Shown here in pieces: positions 7,298 to 48,299 of a stretch of 64,000 bases of DNA. Within the stretch, counting starts at the first letter, position 1. Every line of letters starts with the position of its first letter. Source of the DNA: Leucothrix arctica (GTDB lineage Bacteria > Pseudomonadota > Gammaproteobacteria > Thiotrichales > Thiotrichaceae). Made by a program: the position numbers and the translations under genes. The DNA is taken from the NCBI RefSeq assembly GCF_003172895.1, contig NZ_QGKL01000035.1, positions 1-64,000 of the forward strand, read 5' to 3'. Below the pieces are notes generated by a model. It ran no database searches. It was not told the DNA's origin and saw only the letters and a list, made by a program, of their open reading frames with translations.

Positions 7298-8674
7298 ATG
7301 TACCGTCATCAACTCCAACTTCTTGAGAACTGGTTACAGAAAAAAAACAGAAAGCCACTGATTATCAGAGGAGCGCGTCAAGTGGGTAAATCGACGCTAG
7401 TTGAGTTGTTTGCTCAGAGAAGTGAGATGGTTTTGCAGAACGTCAACTTGGAGCGTTTTCCAGAGCTAAATGACGTTTTTGCGACTAAAGACCCAGACAA
7501 AATTATGGCTCAGATTGAGTTTTTGCCGGGTATGCCAGAGACCAATGATGACCTTTTGTTATTTTTAGATGAGATTCAATCTGTACCAGAAGCAATTCCA
7601 GCTTTGCGTTATTTTTATGAAGATAAGCCCAAGCTACCCGTCGTTAGCGCAGGATCGTTGCTGGAGTTTGCTCTGAGTGAACATCAGTTTTCCATGCCTG
7701 TTGGACGTGTCCAGTACTTACATATGGGGCCAATGACGTTCAGTGAGTTTCTCTTGGCAGTTGGGGAAGACAGATTAGCCAAGTTGATTATGACTTACCA
7801 GTATGGCGATAGCATTCCTGACATTGCAAACAAGCGCCTGTTGGAATTACTTCGCAGTTACTATTTTGTGGGAGGCATGCCAGAAGCTGTTCAAGTCTTT
7901 GCTGAAACGAAAAGCTACCGTGAAGTCAGTGATGTGCATAATTCGATTATCGACACCTATCGAGATGACTTCCCCAAATATGGGGGATCTCGCAATCTTA
8001 ATCGGATGCTAAATGTATTTAACTTTGCGGCCAGAAATGTGGGCGCAAAAGTAAAGTACTCCAATATTTCAGCACAGGACCAGAGCGCAACGCTAAAGAA
8101 AGACTTAGAGCTGCTAATGATGGCGAGAGTGATTAGTAAAGTGGTTCACAGTCATTGCTCTGGCTTACCATTACAAGCAGATATGGAAGAAAAGGTCTTC
8201 AAATTACTGTTTTTGGATGTTGGACTAATGAATGCCATAAGCGGCTTGAACTGGCGTGTGATTTCTCAGTTAGATGAAATGAAGCTAATCAACGAAGGTA
8301 CGATGGCTGAGCAGTTTATTGGACAGCACCTGCAAGGGATTTTGTCTGATACACCGAATCGGGAGCTCACTTACTGGCTTAGAGAAGGCCGTGCGTTGAA
8401 TGCCGAAGTGGATTTTGTGATTGGTTTACAAGGTCAAATTTTGCCTATTGAAGTTAAGGCAGGTGCTACTGGCAGCATGAAATCGCTGCATCAATTTATG
8501 GGTGAAAAAGGGGGCGATCTAGCGATTCGTTTTGATGCTAGTTTACCGGGGGAGTTTGAGGTGAATACGACTATTCGCAGAGGTAATGAGTCGAAGCCAG
8601 TGAAATACCGACTTTTGTCATTACCTATTTATTTGGTGGAGCGGTTGGATGAGGTTATTTCGTCTCAAGCTTGA
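7298..8674 (+). CDS. AAA ATPase with DUF4143 C-terminal domain
   Basis: This 458-residue protein belongs to the AAA_14/DUF4143 family, widespread and often horizontally moved, whose function is poorly known. Walker A is GARQVGKST at residues 25-33 and Walker B is LLLFLDEIQ with Asp91-Glu92. The C-terminal region has an E..D....EVK pattern (LNAEVDFVIGLQG, then PIEVKAG), which recalls the PD-(D/E)XK fold of nuclease-like domains. The gene is alone and convergent with the NACHT-LRR gene. Its placement near that gene hints at an accessory region, but nothing shows that they work together. Confidence 0.85.
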   Translation: MYRHQLQLLENWLQKKNRKPLIIRGARQVGKSTLVELFAQRSEMVLQNVNLERFPELNDVFATKDPDKIMAQIEFLPGMPETNDDLLLFLDEIQSVPEAIPALRYFYEDKPKLPVVSAGSLLEFALSEHQFSMPVGRVQYLHMGPMTFSEFLLAVGEDRLAKLIMTYQYGDSIPDIANKRLLELLRSYYFVGGMPEAVQVFAETKSYREVSDVHNSIIDTYRDDFPKYGGSRNLNRMLNVFNFAARNVGAKVKYSNISAQDQSATLKKDLELLMMARVISKVVHSHCSGLPLQADMEEKVFKLLFLDVGLMNAISGLNWRVISQLDEMKLINEGTMAEQFIGQHLQGILSDTPNRELTYWLREGRALNAEVDFVIGLQGQILPIEVKAGATGSMKSLHQFMGEKGGDLAIRFDASLPGEFEVNTTIRRGNESKPVKYRLLSLPIYLVERLDEVISSQA

Positions 8675-8743
8675 AATTAAAACCTCACAGTTCTTTAGGG
8701 GAGTGATTTAGATGAGGTAGTTTACTATCTGGCTTATACTGGC

Positions 8744-8803
8744 TTAAAAGTCATCTAGAATAACCATATGTAAAAACTTCTGGCCATGAGGCACTGTCTA
8801 TAC
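8744..8803 (-). repeat. Diverged duplicate of the lutC 3' end, directly behind the NACHT-LRR stop codon
   Basis: On the minus strand, the bases after the NACHT-LRR stop (TAG at 8800-8798) read in the same frame as TVPHGQKFLHMVILDDF-stop. The end of lutC (11501-11560) reads QGAHGPEFLHLVIVDDL-stop. From His-Gly to the stop codon, 34 of 45 bases match by hand count and 9 of 14 residues are identical. The copy has no start of its own. It is best read as the displaced 3' end of a lutC gene, left when the 2.7-kb segment carrying the NACHT-LRR gene was inserted. Confidence 0.7.
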
Positions 8804-11440
8804 AAGTATTCTCAGATTTTTTATATCTACTATGCTTCTGAAATCTGTGACTTGTGTCTCACGAAGGTCCAGTGTTGTAAGGTTGGGTAGGTTTGCAATG
8901 CTTCTGATATCAATAACTTTAGTGCCACTAAGGTTTAATGATGTCAATTTGGTTAGAGTCTCAAGGCTACTGATATTACTTACTGGGGTATTACTAAGGT
9001 TCAATGATATTAGGTTTGTTAGAGTTGAAAGTGGGGTGATATCTCTAATTTTAAAACCAGAAATATCTAATGACGTCAGTTTCGTGAGGTGACCAAACAC
9101 ATTCGTCATGTAGCCAGTAGGGTTTCGAGCAAACTTTATGGATTGTACAATGCTTTGTCGAACACCGTGTCTAGAGTCTACAGCATAAGCTTTTAATGTG
9201 TTATGTGCAGATTCAGAGCCGATCAGTGCAAGTGTTCTTATTGATGCAGCAGCTTCCTTCACCATCATTTTTCGATATTCTAAGTGTGGAACTACAAGAT
9301 CACCAGCGATGGCTAATTGGGTAGCAGCAGCAATATTTTTTGGTGGAACAATTCTGCTTAGTCGCTCTGCTACTTTGACTTCTATTTCAGAGTTCTCTTC
9401 ACCCGCGACGAGTAAGTCCAGAGCAGCAACGGAAACTAGATAAAGGGAGTGGTACTCTTCTGCGCTATCACCTCTAGCCAAAAGTTCCAAAATTAGAGCT
9501 GATGCTCGTTTCGGCGACAGGAGACCAGCTGCTAATATTACAACTTCACGCCACTGATCATTGTGGGCATTCTTCACAAGAGTTCCTAGATCATCTTCTT
9601 CTATCGCAGCTTTAGCAGCGAGATACTCCTGAAATGTTCGATGTGGGAAATCAATTTTTTGATGCGCTAATTGTCGGATGATACCAATGCGCTGCATAAA
9701 GAGTTTAGTGACCGCTTTTCCGTCGCAATCTTCCGGAGCGCGATTAAGTCGCTTTGAGTGACGTTGAAAACAATTTATTGTTTCTGTGGGTGTAGCTGTG
9801 GTTTTTTCATTACGAATCATCCACCATGCAAAATTTTGTAACAGACTTTCTTTCTGGCGTGTCCCCAATTTAACATAGTCTGTGGCATCAATACTTCGCT
9901 CTTCGTCTCTCCGCATGAACATTTCGATGCACAGATCATATAATTCAATTCTATCTGAAGGTAAGTTTTGAATTCTTTGTCGGTGTAACGCACATAACAA
10001 AGCACACAATAATGGACTTGTGGCTAGGCGACAAATTGCTGCGTTCTTGAGTAGCTTCGATTTCAGTGAGTCTGAGAGTTTTTGGAGTGCTAATTTTTCG
10101 TTGTCATTATTGGTTGTTTCTGCAACGGCAGCATGCCAGTGTTCGATGAATTCGTGAGTATCATCTAGACCCATGTCTTGCAACTCAGCATCAATAAACT
10201 TATCTGTATTTAGCCATCCTTCTTCAGCAGCATGAGGACGAGACGTAATCAGAAATCGCGACTTAGGGAATGATTCTGTCAAATCATTAAGCCATCGACG
10301 GACGTCGCCACGACGAACTTCAGCTACTTCGTCAAGACCATCTACTAAGATTAGAGCATTTCCCGACTGCAGTTTTTCATGAACCCAACGATCAGGCATG
10401 TTGCCAGCAATAGCTGTTGATGCCTCTTTTGGGAAATCTTCTGGAGCGGGTAGTTCACTATCGGAGAAGTTTCGCAATTTAATCAGAAAGGGTACGCAAC
10501 CATTTAATTCAGCAAGATTTCCTTCCAATCTGCGAGCAGCTGCGAAAACGGCAAACCATTGTAATAGTGTAGTTTTACCTGACCCCGCTGGACCTCTAAC
10601 AAAGAGACGCTCGAACTGAGACAAAGCCTCGTCTGCTTGCATTGAGTCACGAATGTCAACTTGGTTTTCTTCTACCTCAGAATCCACGCTGAGGCGTTCA
10701 ATCATCAGCGTCACGTAGGCAACACTAAGGTTGTATCGTCTGTTGGTTTCGTTTAGATCGACACCGAATAGCTCTAAATGGTCCCATCTACGGACGCAGG
10801 CACTGCGATAATCCGCTTCGAAGGCATCGCTCTGATCATTGACTATGCGATTCATACCTTCGATGACTTGTTCGGCCATTGACTCGGTACGTTTTAATAG
10901 TTCACTGCTGACTGCAGCGTCAAATTTCGGAAACGAACTACTCATATCCACAATGAGTTGTGAGGCGTGAGAAAGTACGCGGCGATAAATTACCTGTTCT
11001 GCTTCTGGAAAGATCTTGTTATCTGTATCTTTACCCGCTAAAGCAGGGTTACCACCTTGTGCACCAGTGCGTTCTAACAAGTAATTAACTAACCGATCCT
11101 TATCGAGATTTCGACCGACCAGAAGTTCGATATCGATAGGTGTATTGCTTAGTGTTTCTGCTGCAGCATTGGAGATGATTCTGAGGCGGCTTTCATCTAC
11201 ACCTTCAGTCTCCTTATGCAGCATTTTTTCGATACTATCGGCAGATAAGTCACGTATTTCATCAAATGTACGTTCCGTTTTTCGTCGACTGAGAACGTCG
11301 GGGACCTTTTTACTCAACAGGTCAGCTATGGTATTGCCCGCTGCATCTACAATTGCTGAGTCGTCTTCCAGCCAAAGTTTGAGAGTCGATTTGGCTACAG
11401 TTGCGCCAATGCCTGCAATAAGTGCTTCAATAAGTATCAT
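8798..11440 (-). CDS. NACHT NTPase with C-terminal leucine-rich repeats (bacterial NLR-like, possible antiphage protein)
   Basis: The 880-residue protein has an N-terminal helical region (1-265, beginning with the hydrophobic stretch ILIEALIAGIGATVA). A NACHT module follows, with Walker A GPAGSGKTT (283-291, Lys289), Walker B ALILVDGLDE (362-371; Asp367, Asp370, Glu371) and sensor RFLITSRPH (395-403). The winged-helix signature is FPHRTFQEYLAAKA (598-611), followed by a HEAT-like helical part (about 620-770) and four 22-residue leucine-rich repeats starting near 788, 810, 832 and 854. No nuclease, TIR or protease motif is recognised at the N-terminus. Bacterial NACHT proteins of this build include proven antiphage proteins; that role here is inferred. 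The gene lies 60 bases behind lutC and before a lutC-tail duplicate. No clear ribosome-binding site is seen. Confidence 0.88.
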   Translation of the reverse strand: MILIEALIAGIGATVAKSTLKLWLEDDSAIVDAAGNTIADLLSKKVPDVLSRRKTERTFDEIRDLSADSIEKMLHKETEGVDESRLRIISNAAAETLSNTPIDIELLVGRNLDKDRLVNYLLERTGAQGGNPALAGKDTDNKIFPEAEQVIYRRVLSHASQLIVDMSSSFPKFDAAVSSELLKRTESMAEQVIEGMNRIVNDQSDAFEADYRSACVRRWDHLELFGVDLNETNRRYNLSVAYVTLMIERLSVDSEVEENQVDIRDSMQADEALSQFERLFVRGPAGSGKTTLLQWFAVFAAARRLEGNLAELNGCVPFLIKLRNFSDSELPAPEDFPKEASTAIAGNMPDRWVHEKLQSGNALILVDGLDEVAEVRRGDVRRWLNDLTESFPKSRFLITSRPHAAEEGWLNTDKFIDAELQDMGLDDTHEFIEHWHAAVAETTNNDNEKLALQKLSDSLKSKLLKNAAICRLATSPLLCALLCALHRQRIQNLPSDRIELYDLCIEMFMRRDEERSIDATDYVKLGTRQKESLLQNFAWWMIRNEKTTATPTETINCFQRHSKRLNRAPEDCDGKAVTKLFMQRIGIIRQLAHQKIDFPHRTFQEYLAAKAAIEEDDLGTLVKNAHNDQWREVVILAAGLLSPKRASALILELLARGDSAEEYHSLYLVSVAALDLLVAGEENSEIEVKVAERLSRIVPPKNIAAATQLAIAGDLVVPHLEYRKMMVKEAAASIRTLALIGSESAHNTLKAYAVDSRHGVRQSIVQSIKFARNPTGYMTNVFGHLTKLTSLDISGFKIRDITPLSTLTNLISLNLSNTPVSNISSLETLTKLTSLNLSGTKVIDIRSIANLPNLTTLDLRETQVTDFRSIVDIKNLRILV

Positions 11441-11500
11441 AGTTCAATCGTACACAGAGAGGGACAGTAGTACAACGAATAAGCATGAAACTAAAGTTGC

Positions 11501-12184
11501 TTATAGATCATCCACAATAACAAGATGCAAAAACTCCGGTCCATGCGCGCCTTGTACCAAAACCCCTTCAATATCCGTCGTACCACTAGCCCCAGAAATA
11601 ATACAGATATTACGAGGCGTCGTACCTTGCTTAGCAATGTCATTTGCAATCAGCGCGTAGTCATCCATAAACGCCAACACCTTCGACTTAGGCGCAGCCA
11701 CCACCAAATACAGCGGTAGGAAGTTTAATAAAATCGGCATGTCCTTGCTTGAGCTAACAACAAACGACCCTGTCTCAGCGATACCGTATTCCGCTAAACA
11801 AACGCCCACCGTGTCATCTTCTATAATGTCAGCATTAATCCCAATACCGTTCCAATCCAGTGACTGCAACTGCTCAGTTTCTTGCACCTTAGCTACTTTT
11901 GGCAGCTTGTGCTTTGCGAAAAACGTTTTCACAGCATTTGGCAAGTCAGCTAAGGTCGCGATTCGCTCGCAACTAGTGCCTATGACCAGACCTTTTTCTA
12001 CTCGCATTTCCAGCGCAATACTCGGGTCATCATGCAGTGCGGCAGGGCGTGCGTCTTCATTCAACGATAGCAACTCAAGTGCTTCTTTTTGAATAGCATC
12101 AATATTCGCAGGTGCAGTGGGTGAAGCTTGCTTTATCGCATCAAAAATCTTCTGCCTACTGATAGCTTCTTGTTGCTTATTCAT
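11501..12184 (-). CDS. lutC: Lactate utilisation protein LutC (LUD domain)
   Basis: This 227-residue protein is the LUD-domain (DUF162) subunit of the LutABC/LldEFG complex, which oxidises L-lactate to pyruvate with iron-sulfur partners in the cytoplasm. Typical features are the middle DDTVGVCLAEYGIAETGSFVV and the end ICIISGASGTTDIEGVLVQGAHGPEF, including the GASxTxDIE motif. It is the last gene of regulator-lutA-lutB-lutC, and its start overlaps the lutB stop by 4 bases (ATGA). Its final 20 codons have a diverged second copy at 8744-8803, on the far side of the NACHT-LRR gene. Confidence 0.9.
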   Translation of the reverse strand: MNKQQEAISRQKIFDAIKQASPTAPANIDAIQKEALELLSLNEDARPAALHDDPSIALEMRVEKGLVIGTSCERIATLADLPNAVKTFFAKHKLPKVAKVQETEQLQSLDWNGIGINADIIEDDTVGVCLAEYGIAETGSFVVSSSKDMPILLNFLPLYLVVAAPKSKVLAFMDDYALIANDIAKQGTTPRNICIISGASGTTDIEGVLVQGAHGPEFLHLVIVDDL

Positions 12185-13617
12185 TGCTGTTTCTCCGCCG
12201 TATTGCTCGATTTTCTCTGTTTTTTATACTGCTGCATGAAGGTTTTTGACTCTGGCGCAATCAAGTCACGGTTGCTCGTCCAACCACTGGTAAATGGCAT
12301 AGATTGTATCCAGCCTTTGCGACTAAACAGTTTCATCATCACAACGCCCATCGAAGACGACAGCTGGAATAACTTAGGTCGACTCGCTAGCATCGCGTAA
12401 GCAGACACCACAAAACGGTTAGTTATTGGCTCGTACTTTTTTGACCAAGACTTTGCGCGAAGTGCGCGTAGCAACTTAGGCAGTGGGATATTGACAGGGC
12501 AGACTTCTTCACAGCGTCCATTAAGCGTGCAGGCGTGTGTTTGTTTATTAGCGACCTCTAAGCCTTCGATGTGAGGCGTCAGTACTGAACCCATCGGGCC
12601 AGGATAAACTGAGCCATACGCATGACCACCGATATGTTTGTAAACCACACAATGATTCATGCAAGCACCGCAACGGATGCAGCGCAGCATTTCTTCCATA
12701 CCGTCAGCCAGCATTTTTGTGCGTCCATTATCGACGAGTACGATGTGTGACACTTCTGGACCATCTGCATCGCCTTCTCGTTTAGCCCCGTTGTGAAAGG
12801 TGATGTACTGGGTGATTTCAGCACCAGTTGCCGAGCGTGTTAGCAGACGAAGTAGGGGAACAGCATGCGCCATCGATGGAACGAGCTTCTCAATCCCCGC
12901 GGTTACTATATGTACTTTAGGCGGTGTGATGGTCAGCTCAGCGTTACCTTCGTTGGTGACCGTGCAAGACGAACCACTGTCTGCGAGTAGAAAGTTAGAG
13001 CCACTGATGCCAATATCAGACGTTAAAAATTTAGTACGTAAGTCACGACGTGCACTACGAACGAGGTCGATAATTTCTTCAGATTGAGTCGGTGATTTAT
13101 GGTTGCTGCGGAACAACTTCACCACGTCTTCACGACTACGGTGCATGGCTGGCCACACGATGTGTGATGGTGGGTCGCCTGCAAGCTGGATAATATGCTC
13201 AGCTAAATCAGTCTCAATTCGCTCCATATCCGAATGATCAAGCGCATGAGATAAGCCGATTTCTTCGCCTAACATCGACTTACTGCGTGTGATTTTCTTT
13301 GCTTCATGCTGCTTGCAAATATCCATCACAATTTTGGTCGCTTCCTCACCAGTACTTGCCCAGTGAACAATCGCGCCCTGTGCTTTGGCGTTTTTTTCAA
13401 ACTCCGCTAGGTAATGATCCATGTGTTTAATGACATGGTCTTTTATTTTCTGACCTTGCGTACGGGCATTTTCAAAACCGGGGAAGTTACTGACCGCTTC
13501 CGCACGTTTCGCATCCGCCTTGTCTGTGGTTCTACGAATGATGGCTTTTAAGTTTGGCTGGGCCAGCGCTTCGCTCACATTTTTGTAGAAGTTCTGAGGC
13601 TTATTTGCTTGCATCAT
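12181..13617 (-). CDS. lutB: Lactate utilisation iron-sulfur protein LutB
   Basis: The 478-residue protein combines a LUD domain (about 65-295) with two 4Fe-4S cluster motifs, CIRCGACMNHC (Cys313, 316, 319, 323) and CTLNGRCEEVCPVNIP (Cys363, 369, 373), followed by a C-terminal helical tail. It is the electron-transfer core of the LutABC L-lactate oxidation complex. It overlaps lutA by 17 bases. GGAGG lies 2 bases before the first ATG and 5 before the second, so initiation at the second Met (13614) is slightly more likely. The length is normal for LutB/LldF. Confidence 0.92.
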   Translation of the reverse strand: MMQANKPQNFYKNVSEALAQPNLKAIIRRTTDKADAKRAEAVSNFPGFENARTQGQKIKDHVIKHMDHYLAEFEKNAKAQGAIVHWASTGEEATKIVMDICKQHEAKKITRSKSMLGEEIGLSHALDHSDMERIETDLAEHIIQLAGDPPSHIVWPAMHRSREDVVKLFRSNHKSPTQSEEIIDLVRSARRDLRTKFLTSDIGISGSNFLLADSGSSCTVTNEGNAELTITPPKVHIVTAGIEKLVPSMAHAVPLLRLLTRSATGAEITQYITFHNGAKREGDADGPEVSHIVLVDNGRTKMLADGMEEMLRCIRCGACMNHCVVYKHIGGHAYGSVYPGPMGSVLTPHIEGLEVANKQTHACTLNGRCEEVCPVNIPLPKLLRALRAKSWSKKYEPITNRFVVSAYAMLASRPKLFQLSSSMGVVMMKLFSRKGWIQSMPFTSGWTSNRDLIAPESKTFMQQYKKQRKSSNTAEKQQ

Positions 13618-14416
13618 TGCCTCCTGAGTTTTCCATTGCTTTATTTTGCATGGCTTCAGGACGTTGACCAGTGAGTAATTCAGCAGTGTGCAGAGTTTTA
13701 ATTTCGGTATGACCTTCGCGGTTTAACTTACCCGCCATATTCATCAGGCAACCCATGTCGCCACCGAGTAAATAGTCTGCTTTTGTCGCGACGATATTTT
13801 CAGTTTTTTCACCAACAATGGCGTTAGATATGTCGGTGTATTTCACGCAAAATGTACCACCAAAACCGCAGCACTCGGTACTGGCAGTTAGCTGTTTATG
13901 CTCCAAACCTTCGACAGAGGACAGTAACTTTCGTGGTTGCTCATAAACACCCAATGAGCGTAAACCAGAGCAACTATCGTGGTAGGTATAAGACCCGTCG
14001 AGCGACACATTTTTTGGTTCGAAATCACATATATCAACCAGAAAAGACAGCAGTTCATGAGTGATGCTGGCAAGGTGTTCCGCTCTTGTTAACCATTCTG
14101 GTTGATCTTGAAAGACTTCCACAAAGTGCTTCTTAATCATTGATGCACAAGACCCCGACGGCACAACGAGGTAGTCGAAATGCTCAAAGTGCTGAATGAC
14201 TTGTTTGGCAACTTGCCGCGTGCCTTCATCGTCACCTGAGTTAAACGACGGTTGGCCACAGCATGACTGTAGCTCGGGTACTTCAACGGAGCAGCCAGCT
14301 TCTTCGAGCAGTTGCACAGAGGCAAAACCAACGGAAGGGCGCATGGTGTTCACTAGGCAGGTAACAAACAGTCCAACTTTCTTGTCAGATATTTGTGAGT
14401 CTTTCGTATTCATCAT
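13601..14416 (-). CDS. lutA: Lactate utilisation protein LutA (CCG-domain Fe-S oxidoreductase)
   Basis: This 271-residue protein has the two cysteine-rich CCG domains of LutA/LldE: ELQSCCGQPSFNSGD near residue 50 and ECCGFGGTFCVKY near residue 180, with VPSGSCASMIKKH and YHDSCSGLRSLG as the partner Cys motifs. In this family such domains hold a non-cubane iron-sulfur cluster and act with LutB and LutC in lactate oxidation. The N-terminal KVGLFVTCLVNTMRPSVG is typical. Its start overlaps the regulator's stop by 4 bases, so translation is coupled. The C-terminal tail is a little longer than usual. Confidence 0.92.
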   Translation of the reverse strand: MMNTKDSQISDKKVGLFVTCLVNTMRPSVGFASVQLLEEAGCSVEVPELQSCCGQPSFNSGDDEGTRQVAKQVIQHFEHFDYLVVPSGSCASMIKKHFVEVFQDQPEWLTRAEHLASITHELLSFLVDICDFEPKNVSLDGSYTYHDSCSGLRSLGVYEQPRKLLSSVEGLEHKQLTASTECCGFGGTFCVKYTDISNAIVGEKTENIVATKADYLLGGDMGCLMNMAGKLNREGHTEIKTLHTAELLTGQRPEAMQNKAMENSGGNDASK

Positions 14417-46411: not shown

Positions 46412-47302
46412 TTAAGGCGTGAGTATTTTCACTAGGTCTTTAGCCATTTGCTCTGCGGCCATGATGCCTCTACAGCGCGACCAAGTATTTGGGTCAACGT
46501 TGAAGATACGGTTGTTTTTGACAGCCTTGAGCACATTCCAGAGTGGCTCTTTTTCCCAGTCGTTAAGCACATTTGGTTTTGAGTATTCACCAATAATAAG
46601 GTAGTCAGGGTTTACCGCTAGTAGCTGCTCAAGACTGACGCGACGAGATGCGCCATCTTTTGCACCTGTTTTTGCATTTTCTAAACCAAGTGCTTTGATA
46701 ACGCCGCCAGCATAAGCCGCTTCTGGGTGTAATGACAGTAGGTCATGGCGCGCTACACCAAACTGAAATGATCCACCTTTAGGCAGTTTTTCTTTGTAGC
46801 TTTGCATAAACTCACGATGCTGAGTGAGTCGTGCCTGCATAGCTTCATGTTTACCGACCACTTTGCCGATGATCGCTGACGCTTTAAGGTTGTCCTCGTA
46901 AGTCTCGCGGCGTGAACGAAGAATCAATGTCGGCGCAATCTTTTTCAAGTCTTCGTAGACTGCTTCGTGACGACCAATATCTGCGATAATGAGGTCTGGT
47001 TTTAATGACGCGATGACTTCTAGGCTGGGTTGTGAACGCATACCCACAGACTCCCAGTCACCAATGACCTCACGTACCGCAGGGAGTACCCGTGCTTTTT
47101 CTTTATCATCCGCAATACCAACAGGGCTAATGCCTACCGCTGCCAATGCATCTGCAAAAGAAAACTCTAAAACGACAATGCGCTTCGGTGTGTATTCTAT
47201 TGAAAAGGTACCTTTTTCATCCTCTACATCGACAGCAGAAGCGAGTGCGGGAAGTGCGACAATAAGCAAACTTAACCCTAATAGTTTTAATGAACGTAAC
47301 AT
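46412..47302 (-). CDS. Siderophore-binding protein, paralogue A
   Basis: This 296-residue protein has a signal peptide (LKLLGLSLLIVALPALASA) and the class III binding-protein fold (YTPKRIVVLEFSFADALAAVG, LEVIASLKPDLIIADIGRHE, LLAVNPDYLIIGEY). It passes a ferric siderophore to the adjacent permeases. It is a tandem duplicate of the gene at 47409: about 89% identical over the first 159 residues but about 71% over the rest, counted by hand. The changed C-terminal lobe, including LPKGGSFQFGVARHD, faces the ligand in this fold, so the two may bind different complexes. Confidence 0.9.
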   Translation of the reverse strand: MLRSLKLLGLSLLIVALPALASAVDVEDEKGTFSIEYTPKRIVVLEFSFADALAAVGISPVGIADDKEKARVLPAVREVIGDWESVGMRSQPSLEVIASLKPDLIIADIGRHEAVYEDLKKIAPTLILRSRRETYEDNLKASAIIGKVVGKHEAMQARLTQHREFMQSYKEKLPKGGSFQFGVARHDLLSLHPEAAYAGGVIKALGLENAKTGAKDGASRRVSLEQLLAVNPDYLIIGEYSKPNVLNDWEKEPLWNVLKAVKNNRIFNVDPNTWSRCRGIMAAEQMAKDLVKILTP

Positions 47303-47354
47303 AAGAAATCCTGAGGGAAGGGATTGTTAGAAAGTTAGGCTAACCCTAGCTAAA

Positions 47355-47382
47355 CCGCAGCACGCATAAATACGCACTGTGG
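47355..47382 (-). other. Hairpin between the two binding-protein genes
   Basis: On the minus strand CCACAGTGCGTA pairs with TGCGTGCTGCGG around a TTTA loop (12 positions with one mismatch and three G-T pairs). There is no T-tract. It could stabilise or process the mRNA and so set different levels for the two paralogues. Confidence 0.5.
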
Positions 47383-47408
47383 TAAGGCTGTGTTAGATAT
47401 TATTTACT

Positions 47409-48299
47409 TTAGATGGTCAGTATTTTCACTAGATCTTGAGCCATTTGCTCAGCCGCCATGATGCCTCTACAGCGTGACCAAGTATTTGGGTTAACGTATG
47501 AAATATGGTCATTTTTGACTGACTTTAAGATCTTCCAAAGAGGCTCTTTTTTCCAATTACTTAACGCATTGGGCTGTGTATATTCACCGACAATAAGGTA
47601 GTCAGGGTTTACGCCAAGTAACTGCTCAAGGCTAACAGGTAGGTATGCTTTATCTTTTGCCCCCGTTTTGGCATTCTCTAGTCCCATTGCTTTTATGACG
47701 CCAGCGGCATAAGAGTCTTCTGTGTGTAAGTAAAGTAGATCGCTATTTACAACACCAAACTGGAATGACGCAGAGACAGTTAACGTTTGTTTATAGCTTT
47801 GCATCAACTCATGGTGTTTAGCTAACCTTGCTTGCATCGCTTCATTTTTATTAACGACTTTGCCAATAATAGCTGCGGCCGCAAGATTGTCCTCGTAAGT
47901 TTCCGTACGTGAGCGGAGCATCAATGTCGGCGCAATCTTTTTCAAGTCTTCGTAGACCGCTTCGTGACGACCAATATCCGCAATAATGAGGTCTGGTTTT
48001 AATGACGCGATGACTTCTAGGCTTGGTTGTGAGCGCATACCAACCGACGTCCAGTCACCAATGGCTTCACGCACAGCAGGTAACACGCGCGATTTTTCTT
48101 TATCATCAGCAATACCAATAGGGCCAAGACCAACCGCTGCTAATGCGTCTGCAAAAGATAACTCTAAAACGACAATGCGCTTGGGTGTGTATTCTATTGA
48201 AAAGGTACCTTTTTCATCCTCCACATCGACAGCAGAAGCTAACGATGGGAGGGCGAAAATAAGCACACTTAAACATAAAAGTTTAAATGAACGTAACAT
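47409..48299 (-). CDS. Siderophore-binding protein, paralogue B
   Basis: The 296-residue protein has a signal peptide (LKLLCLSVLIFALPSLASA) and the same fold as paralogue A, including GMRSQPSLEVIASLKPDLII and NPNTWSRCRGIMAAEQMAQD. It is the gene nearest the receptor in the operon. Differences from A cluster in the second half (LTVSASFQFGVVNSDLLYLH, KDKAYLPVSLEQL). Both copies are intact with equal lengths, so neither looks like a decaying pseudogene. Confidence 0.9.
   Translation of the reverse strand: MLRSFKLLCLSVLIFALPSLASAVDVEDEKGTFSIEYTPKRIVVLELSFADALAAVGLGPIGIADDKEKSRVLPAVREAIGDWTSVGMRSQPSLEVIASLKPDLIIADIGRHEAVYEDLKKIAPTLMLRSRTETYEDNLAAAAIIGKVVNKNEAMQARLAKHHELMQSYKQTLTVSASFQFGVVNSDLLYLHTEDSYAAGVIKAMGLENAKTGAKDKAYLPVSLEQLLGVNPDYLIVGEYTQPNALSNWKKEPLWKILKSVKNDHISYVNPNTWSRCRGIMAAEQMAQDLVKILTI

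What the first reader, a model, noticed from the sequence alone, without database searches (positions are those of the whole stretch)
8744..11560. Single-gene insertion scar: the NACHT-LRR gene is flanked by two copies of the lutC 3' end
The 3' end of intact lutC (11501-11560) and the bases just behind the NACHT-LRR stop (8744-8803) encode the same C-terminus: HGPEFLHLVIVDDL-stop against HGQKFLHMVILDDF-stop, with 34 of 45 bases equal by hand count. The second copy is in the same frame as the NACHT-LRR gene, separated from it only by TAG. This pattern is expected if a 2.7-kb segment entered at the lutC tail and brought a replacement tail with it, as many integrated elements do for their target gene. 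No integrase is present, so the 3' end of lutC may be a docking site for interchangeable single-gene cargo.
Basis: partly seen in the sequence, partly recalled or inferred. Interest (0 to 1): 0.82.

Follow-up and report, generated by a model that had tools for sequence, protein, structure and literature searches.

The report
NACHT-LRR gene inserted behind lutC
A probable phage-defence gene sits just behind a lactate-use gene and is followed by a worn-out second copy of that gene's last 45 bases, a scar of DNA insertion that also occurs, with different cargo, in a relative of Neptunomonas.

Summary
Window 8742-8788 and 11499-11545 (both minus strand) match at 36 of 47 bases without gaps. None of 60,000 random 200-base stretches scored as high. 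A LUD-tail profile built without this genome's own LutC ranks HGQKFLHMVILDDF second of 61,977 window peptides, behind only the true lutC tail. The second tail has Q where all 137 LutC reading frames examined have P, so it is a displaced, decaying remnant.

No relative carrying this exact locus is held, so the window's own empty site could not be shown. The closest lutC orthologues lie in Neptunomonas and Colwellia relatives. Eight with enough downstream sequence have one tail. One genome, G872, has the same geometry with other cargo: intact lutC, cupin/TetR/broken umuDC, then a decayed lutB-lutC fragment 97% identical to the first copy. Sister genomes lack that cargo.

The insertion reading is therefore the likeliest. 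'Replacement tail by an integrated element' and 'docking site for interchangeable single genes' are not shown: duplicated lengths differ (47 versus about 309 bases), no integrase was found, and the NACHT LRR array stops mid-repeat at the junction. The likeliest mechanism is homologous recombination at the lutC end, a known kind of event.

The parts
11501..12184 (-). lutC, intact LUD-domain protein (227 aa), last gene of lutABC
   Evidence: Pfam LUD_dom 1.4e-19; nearest orthologues about 58-64% identical in Neptunomonas/Colwellia relatives
11499..11545 (-). tail copy 1: lutC 3' end, CATGGACCGG...CTATAAGC, HGPEFLHLVIVDDL-stop
   Evidence: 36/47 identical to tail copy 2
11441..11498 (-). 58-base gap between lutC and the NACHT gene; no terminator-like site and no sigma-70-like promoter by consensus scan, so co-transcription with lutABC is possible
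8798..11440 (-). NNH1-NACHT-LRR protein, 880 aa (bacterial NLR type); LRR array stops mid-repeat (IKNLRILV-stop) 9 bases before tail copy 2
   Evidence: Pfam NNH1 4.3e-31, NACHT 1.9e-20, LRR_4 8.1e-14; no PADLOC model; nearest plasmid-borne hits are Streptomyces NACHT proteins, about 35% over residues 200-753, without the LRR part; LRR end compared
8742..8788 (-). tail copy 2: displaced, decaying lutC 3' end, HGQKFLHMVILDDF-stop
8675..8741 (-). short stretch behind tail 2 with a weak hairpin (CCTCATC/GTGAGG) followed by TTTT; candidate original end of the lut operon (inference)
   Evidence: fold; not called by the terminator scan
7298..8674 (+). convergent AAA_14/DUF4143 ATPase, outer flank of the insertion
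   Evidence: Pfam
12181..13617 (-). lutB
   Evidence: Pfam LUD_dom and Fer4
13601..14416 (-). lutA
   Evidence: Pfam CCG

Best explanation
The window shows an integrase-free insertion at the 3' end of lutC. DNA carrying an NNH1-NACHT-LRR gene next to a related lutC end recombined with the resident lutC. This left one complete lutC, then the NACHT gene, then a second lutC tail that has no function and is decaying. Shown: the two tails, their orientation and frame, the non-functional state of the second, a second case with other cargo, and sister loci with one tail. Inferred: that the cargo and the duplication arose in one event, and that the event was homologous recombination, for example a single crossover by a circle or exchange with transforming DNA. 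The NACHT protein is probably an anti-phage sensor, inferred from its domains only.
For: Tail similarity is far beyond chance by DNA and by profile. HGP is invariant in 137 of 137 LutC reading frames (some from overlapping loci), but tail 2 reads HGQ. Differences between the tails fall 4/1/6 on codon positions 1/2/3, as in diverged coding sequence. The NACHT gene is foreign-looking by distribution: nearest matches 35% in Streptomyces plasmids, no close relative in the genus or family. G872 shows the same geometry with cupin/TetR/broken umuDC: copy 2 is 97% identical to copy 1 over 310 bases and is preceded by a 51-base lutB 3' piece. What follows copy 2 (OprD, AraC) is what follows the only lutC in G871. 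The cupin and TetR genes are absent from G871 and G877, and umuDC homologues elsewhere are only 64-71% identical. G877 and G871 are 94.8% identical up to 12 bases past the lutC stop, then differ by 0.23 versus 5.2 kb before 98% identity resumes near thrS; G874/G876 (88%) break 2 bases before the stop.
Against: No empty allele of the window's own locus is held, so simultaneity of cargo and duplication is not shown. The tails differ by 23%, against 3% in G872, so this event is old or joined diverged alleles. Tail 1 is about as close to Neptunomonas tails (30-36 of 45) as to tail 2 (34 of 45), so tail origins cannot be resolved. Only two tail-duplicated cases are known. Base composition and codon use of the NACHT gene are not sharply different from its neighbours.
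Confidence: 0.6

Rival explanations
1. Two unconnected events: lutC (or lutBC) was first duplicated in tandem, the second copy decayed, and the NACHT gene later landed between the copies.
For: Tandem duplication with decay of one copy is common; copy 2 in G872 looks like a decayed lutBC duplicate with an internal deletion; the tails of the window are old (23% different).
Against: Needs two events in each of two lineages, both ending with foreign cargo exactly between the copies. 8 of 8 close lutC loci with enough downstream sequence have no second copy. In G872 most of the nine copy differences are synonymous by reading and six lie within 32 bases, as if two alleles met rather than one copy decaying.
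Confidence: 0.22
2. Site-specific integration: a recombinase supplied in trans or since lost used the lutC 3' end as attachment site and restored the gene tail.
For: Direct repeat at a gene 3' end with the gene kept intact is the classic outcome; the conserved HGPxxLH codons would make a stable site.
Against: No integrase among the Pfam-scanned genes around the site or in the G872 cargo; repeat lengths differ, 47 versus about 309 bases plus lutB sequence; no other second tail in 137 lutC reading frames.
Confidence: 0.1
3. Chance similarity behind the NACHT gene.
For: Only 47 bases long; some unrelated GC-rich loci give gapped scores of 31-36.
Against: 0 of 60,000 random stretches; second of 61,977 peptides by an independent profile, with the third being a true LUD homologue; same strand, in frame, same stop.
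Confidence: 0.02

Closest known systems
Insertion with long target duplication (Nobusato et al. 2000, as described in PMC1643837 and PMC3031569)
   Same: Inserted gene flanked by long direct repeats of variable length made from the target; no integrase; first seen with restriction-modification genes, another defence function.
   Different: There the repeats were found by comparing two strains with and without the insert. Here the window repeat is short and 23% diverged, the cargo is a NACHT-LRR gene, and no same-species empty allele is held.
[quoted passage not shown] 2017, PMC5635113)
   Same: Different accessory genes at one junction between conserved neighbours (lutC and thrS in the Neptunomonas family), without integrases.
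   Different: The published model is a double crossover in both flanks and needs no duplicated tail; recombination rates were not measured here.
Prophages and islands integrated at gene 3' ends that restore the tail (for example e14 at icd; from memory, not tested)
   Same: Target gene stays intact and a displaced tail remains at the far end.
   Different: No integrase, no fixed core, variable duplicated length.
Bacterial NACHT proteins and bona fide bacterial NLRs (bNACHT; PMC12169576 and references there)
   Same: Central NACHT ATPase with LRR; NNH1 N-terminal domain by Pfam.
   Different: No PADLOC model matches; antiphage activity untested; LRR array short and apparently cut at its end.

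Membership tests
Insertion with long target duplication | Long direct repeat of target sequence flanking the inserted gene | tested here: met
   47 bases at 77% here; about 309 bases at 97% in G872
Insertion with long target duplication | Related genome with a single copy and no insert at the same place | tested here: inconclusive
   Met for G872 (G871 and G877 single, cargo absent); not testable for the window's own locus
Insertion with long target duplication | Repeat length varies between events | tested here: met
   47 versus about 309 bases
Homologous-recombination hotspot | Different accessory genes between the same conserved flanks | tested here: met
   lutC to thrS: about 0.2-0.3 kb in G877 and G876, 5.3 kb in G871, 8.8 kb in G872; the window itself has no thrS flank
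Homologous-recombination hotspot | No mobility genes in the cargo | tested here: met
   Pfam on the window neighbours and G872 cargo; cargo ORFs of G871 read only
Homologous-recombination hotspot | Raised recombination in flanking genes | not tested
   Too few genomes
Integrase-borne island at a gene 3' end | Integrase gene inside the element | tested here: not met
   The cargo between the tails is one gene and it is not an integrase
Integrase-borne island at a gene 3' end | Fixed crossover core shared by independent insertions | tested here: not met
   Upstream boundary of the second copy differs: codon 214 of lutC here, codon 125-126 in G872
Bacterial NLR (NACHT-LRR) | NACHT domain with Walker motifs plus LRR | tested here: met
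   Pfam NACHT and LRR_4; GPAGSGKTT and LILVDGLDEV in the sequence
Bacterial NLR (NACHT-LRR) | Antiphage activity | not testable with these tools
   Needs a bench test

The most novel reading that the evidence does not exclude
The lutC 3' end is a recurrent place in marine Gammaproteobacteria where small cargo, including single defence genes, is added by integrase-free, tail-duplicating recombination that keeps lutC intact and can put the cargo under the lactate operon's promoter.
Probability: 0.22. Interest if true: 0.62.

Novelty: new member of a known kind. Interest (0 to 1): 0.42.

Why it matters
How defence genes reach chromosomes without an integrase is mostly inferred from population statistics. 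A locus that keeps the scar, with related genomes showing empty and differently filled states, lets the step be dated and its junctions read. It also suggests a search: look behind intact metabolic genes for short decayed copies of their own 3' ends.

Tried and rejected
Chance match: rejected. Empty site in the genus or family: none of 63 family genomes has this lutC apart from the window's own; a first genome-contig scan with LutC alone found nothing. Second tails behind other lutC genes: scores of 31-36 in Paracoccus, Roseomonas and others are gapped, GC-rich matches without the tail peptide, rejected. Isolated lutC tail in G103 (L073): lies after unrelated repeat sequence in a contig, possible rearrangement or assembly artefact, not counted. 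G1166 lutC split between two contig ends: an assembly gap, not an insertion. AAA_14 gene behind lutC in G1166 as shared flank: only 29% identical to the window gene, rejected. Deciding which window tail is native from 45 bases: not possible. NACHT relatives in phages, viral contigs, E. coli: nothing close. lutC in viral contigs: none. A paper naming lutC as an integration site: none seen. One tail comparison used a frame shifted by a base and was redone.

Full report
1. What is there. On the minus strand the order is lldR, lutA, lutB, lutC (11501-12184), a gap of about 60 bases, an 880-codon gene (8798-11440), and then 9 bases after its stop a copy of the lutC 3' end (8742-8788). A convergent AAA_14/DUF4143 gene (7298-8674) follows. 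The 880-aa protein is NNH1-NACHT-LRR by Pfam, so it has the build of a bacterial NLR. PADLOC has no model for it.

2. The repeat is real. Random stretches do not reach its score (0 of 60,000; 0 of 60 shuffles). The strongest test uses no DNA comparison between the two copies. A profile of 83 LUD tails from other genomes ranks HGPEFLHLVIVDDL first and HGQKFLHMVILDDF second among 61,977 peptides of the window. The third is the LUD domain of LutB, a true homologue, and the fourth is far below. The copy is a lutC tail.

3. Its state. All 137 LutC reading frames examined (some from overlapping loci) have HGP; the copy has HGQ. It has no gene body. It is a remnant. Its differences from the intact tail fall 4/1/6 on codon positions 1/2/3, a mild sign that the two tails diverged in part as coding sequence, so two alleles may have met.

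4. Relatives. The other genomes of the genus and family (63 searched, own included) lack this lutC type; their LutC is 26-37% similar over part of the protein. In GTDB contigs the nearest are a Colwellia MAG (64%) and Neptunomonas qingdaonensis (62%). Searching the families of those two genomes gave further close orthologues, 58-64% identical to the window LutC. Eight of these loci have at least 5 kb behind lutC and only one tail.

5. The second case. In G872, of the family of N. qingdaonensis, intact lutC is followed by a cupin gene, a TetR regulator and a broken umuDC, then a 51-base piece of the lutB end and the last 309 bases of lutC, 97% identical to the first copy. Behind this second copy come OprD and AraC genes; in G871 the same sequence follows the only lutC (80.7% and 99%). 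The cupin and TetR genes are absent from G871 and G877. So the second copy sits where the lutC end was before, and cargo came in between. Of nine differences between the copies most are synonymous by reading and six lie within 32 bases, which fits two alleles rather than decay of one.

6. The junction changes often in that clade. G877 and G871 are 94.8% identical through lutABC up to 12 bases beyond the lutC stop, then wholly different (0.23 versus 5.2 kb), then 98.4% identical into thrS. G874 and G876 (88%) part 2 bases before the stop. More distant pairs also part there, but that only shows that spacers diverge fast. The sequence behind lutC in G871 and G874 holds no second tail, so tail duplication is not the rule.

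7. Mechanism. A site-specific integrase is not favoured: none was found in or near either cargo, and the two second copies start at different codons of lutC. Recombination with DNA that carries a lutC end beside other genes explains one complete gene, cargo and a truncated copy, with length set by the homology on the incoming DNA. A single crossover by a circle would do it. This is inference; the products fit, the event was not observed. The cargo's right boundary here falls within an LRR repeat, so the NACHT gene probably lost its own end.

8. What is known. Insertion with long and variable target duplication was described for restriction-modification genes in Helicobacter pylori (Nobusato et al. 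2000, cited in PMC1643837 and PMC3031569). [quoted passage not shown]). The finding belongs with these. What is new is the place, the NACHT-LRR cargo, and the pair of independent scars.

9. Verdict. The scar reading is the best account, about 0.6. The docking-site reading rests on two tail-duplicated cases and one variable clade and remains open.

Noticed in passing
L193, L194, L196, L192 (Neptunomonas-family genomes G877, G871, G876, G872): The lutC-thrS interval varies from about 0.2 to 8.8 kb with different genes and different terminators directly behind lutC. The terminator behind G872's first lutC copy resembles that of G876, and the one behind its second copy resembles that of G871.
   Followed up: partly
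L073 2094-2230 (G103:C52): A lutC 3' fragment of the other LutC type stands alone behind unrelated repeat sequence and directly before a D-lactate dehydrogenase-like gene; rearrangement or assembly artefact.
   Followed up: partly
G1166:C126 end and G1166:C180 end (L212, L213): Assembly breaks inside lutC between residues about 118 and 172, near the point where G872's second copy begins; a repeated lutC segment could cause such a break.
   Followed up: no
window 46412-48299: Two adjacent, very similar genes for iron-siderophore binding proteins (296 aa each), a recent tandem duplication within a large TonB/siderophore uptake cluster (20-55 kb).
   Followed up: no
window 8801-9100: The internalin-like LRR part of the NACHT protein is poorer in G+C (36%) than the rest of the gene (44%) and its relatives differ from those of the NACHT part, suggesting a composite gene.
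   Followed up: partly
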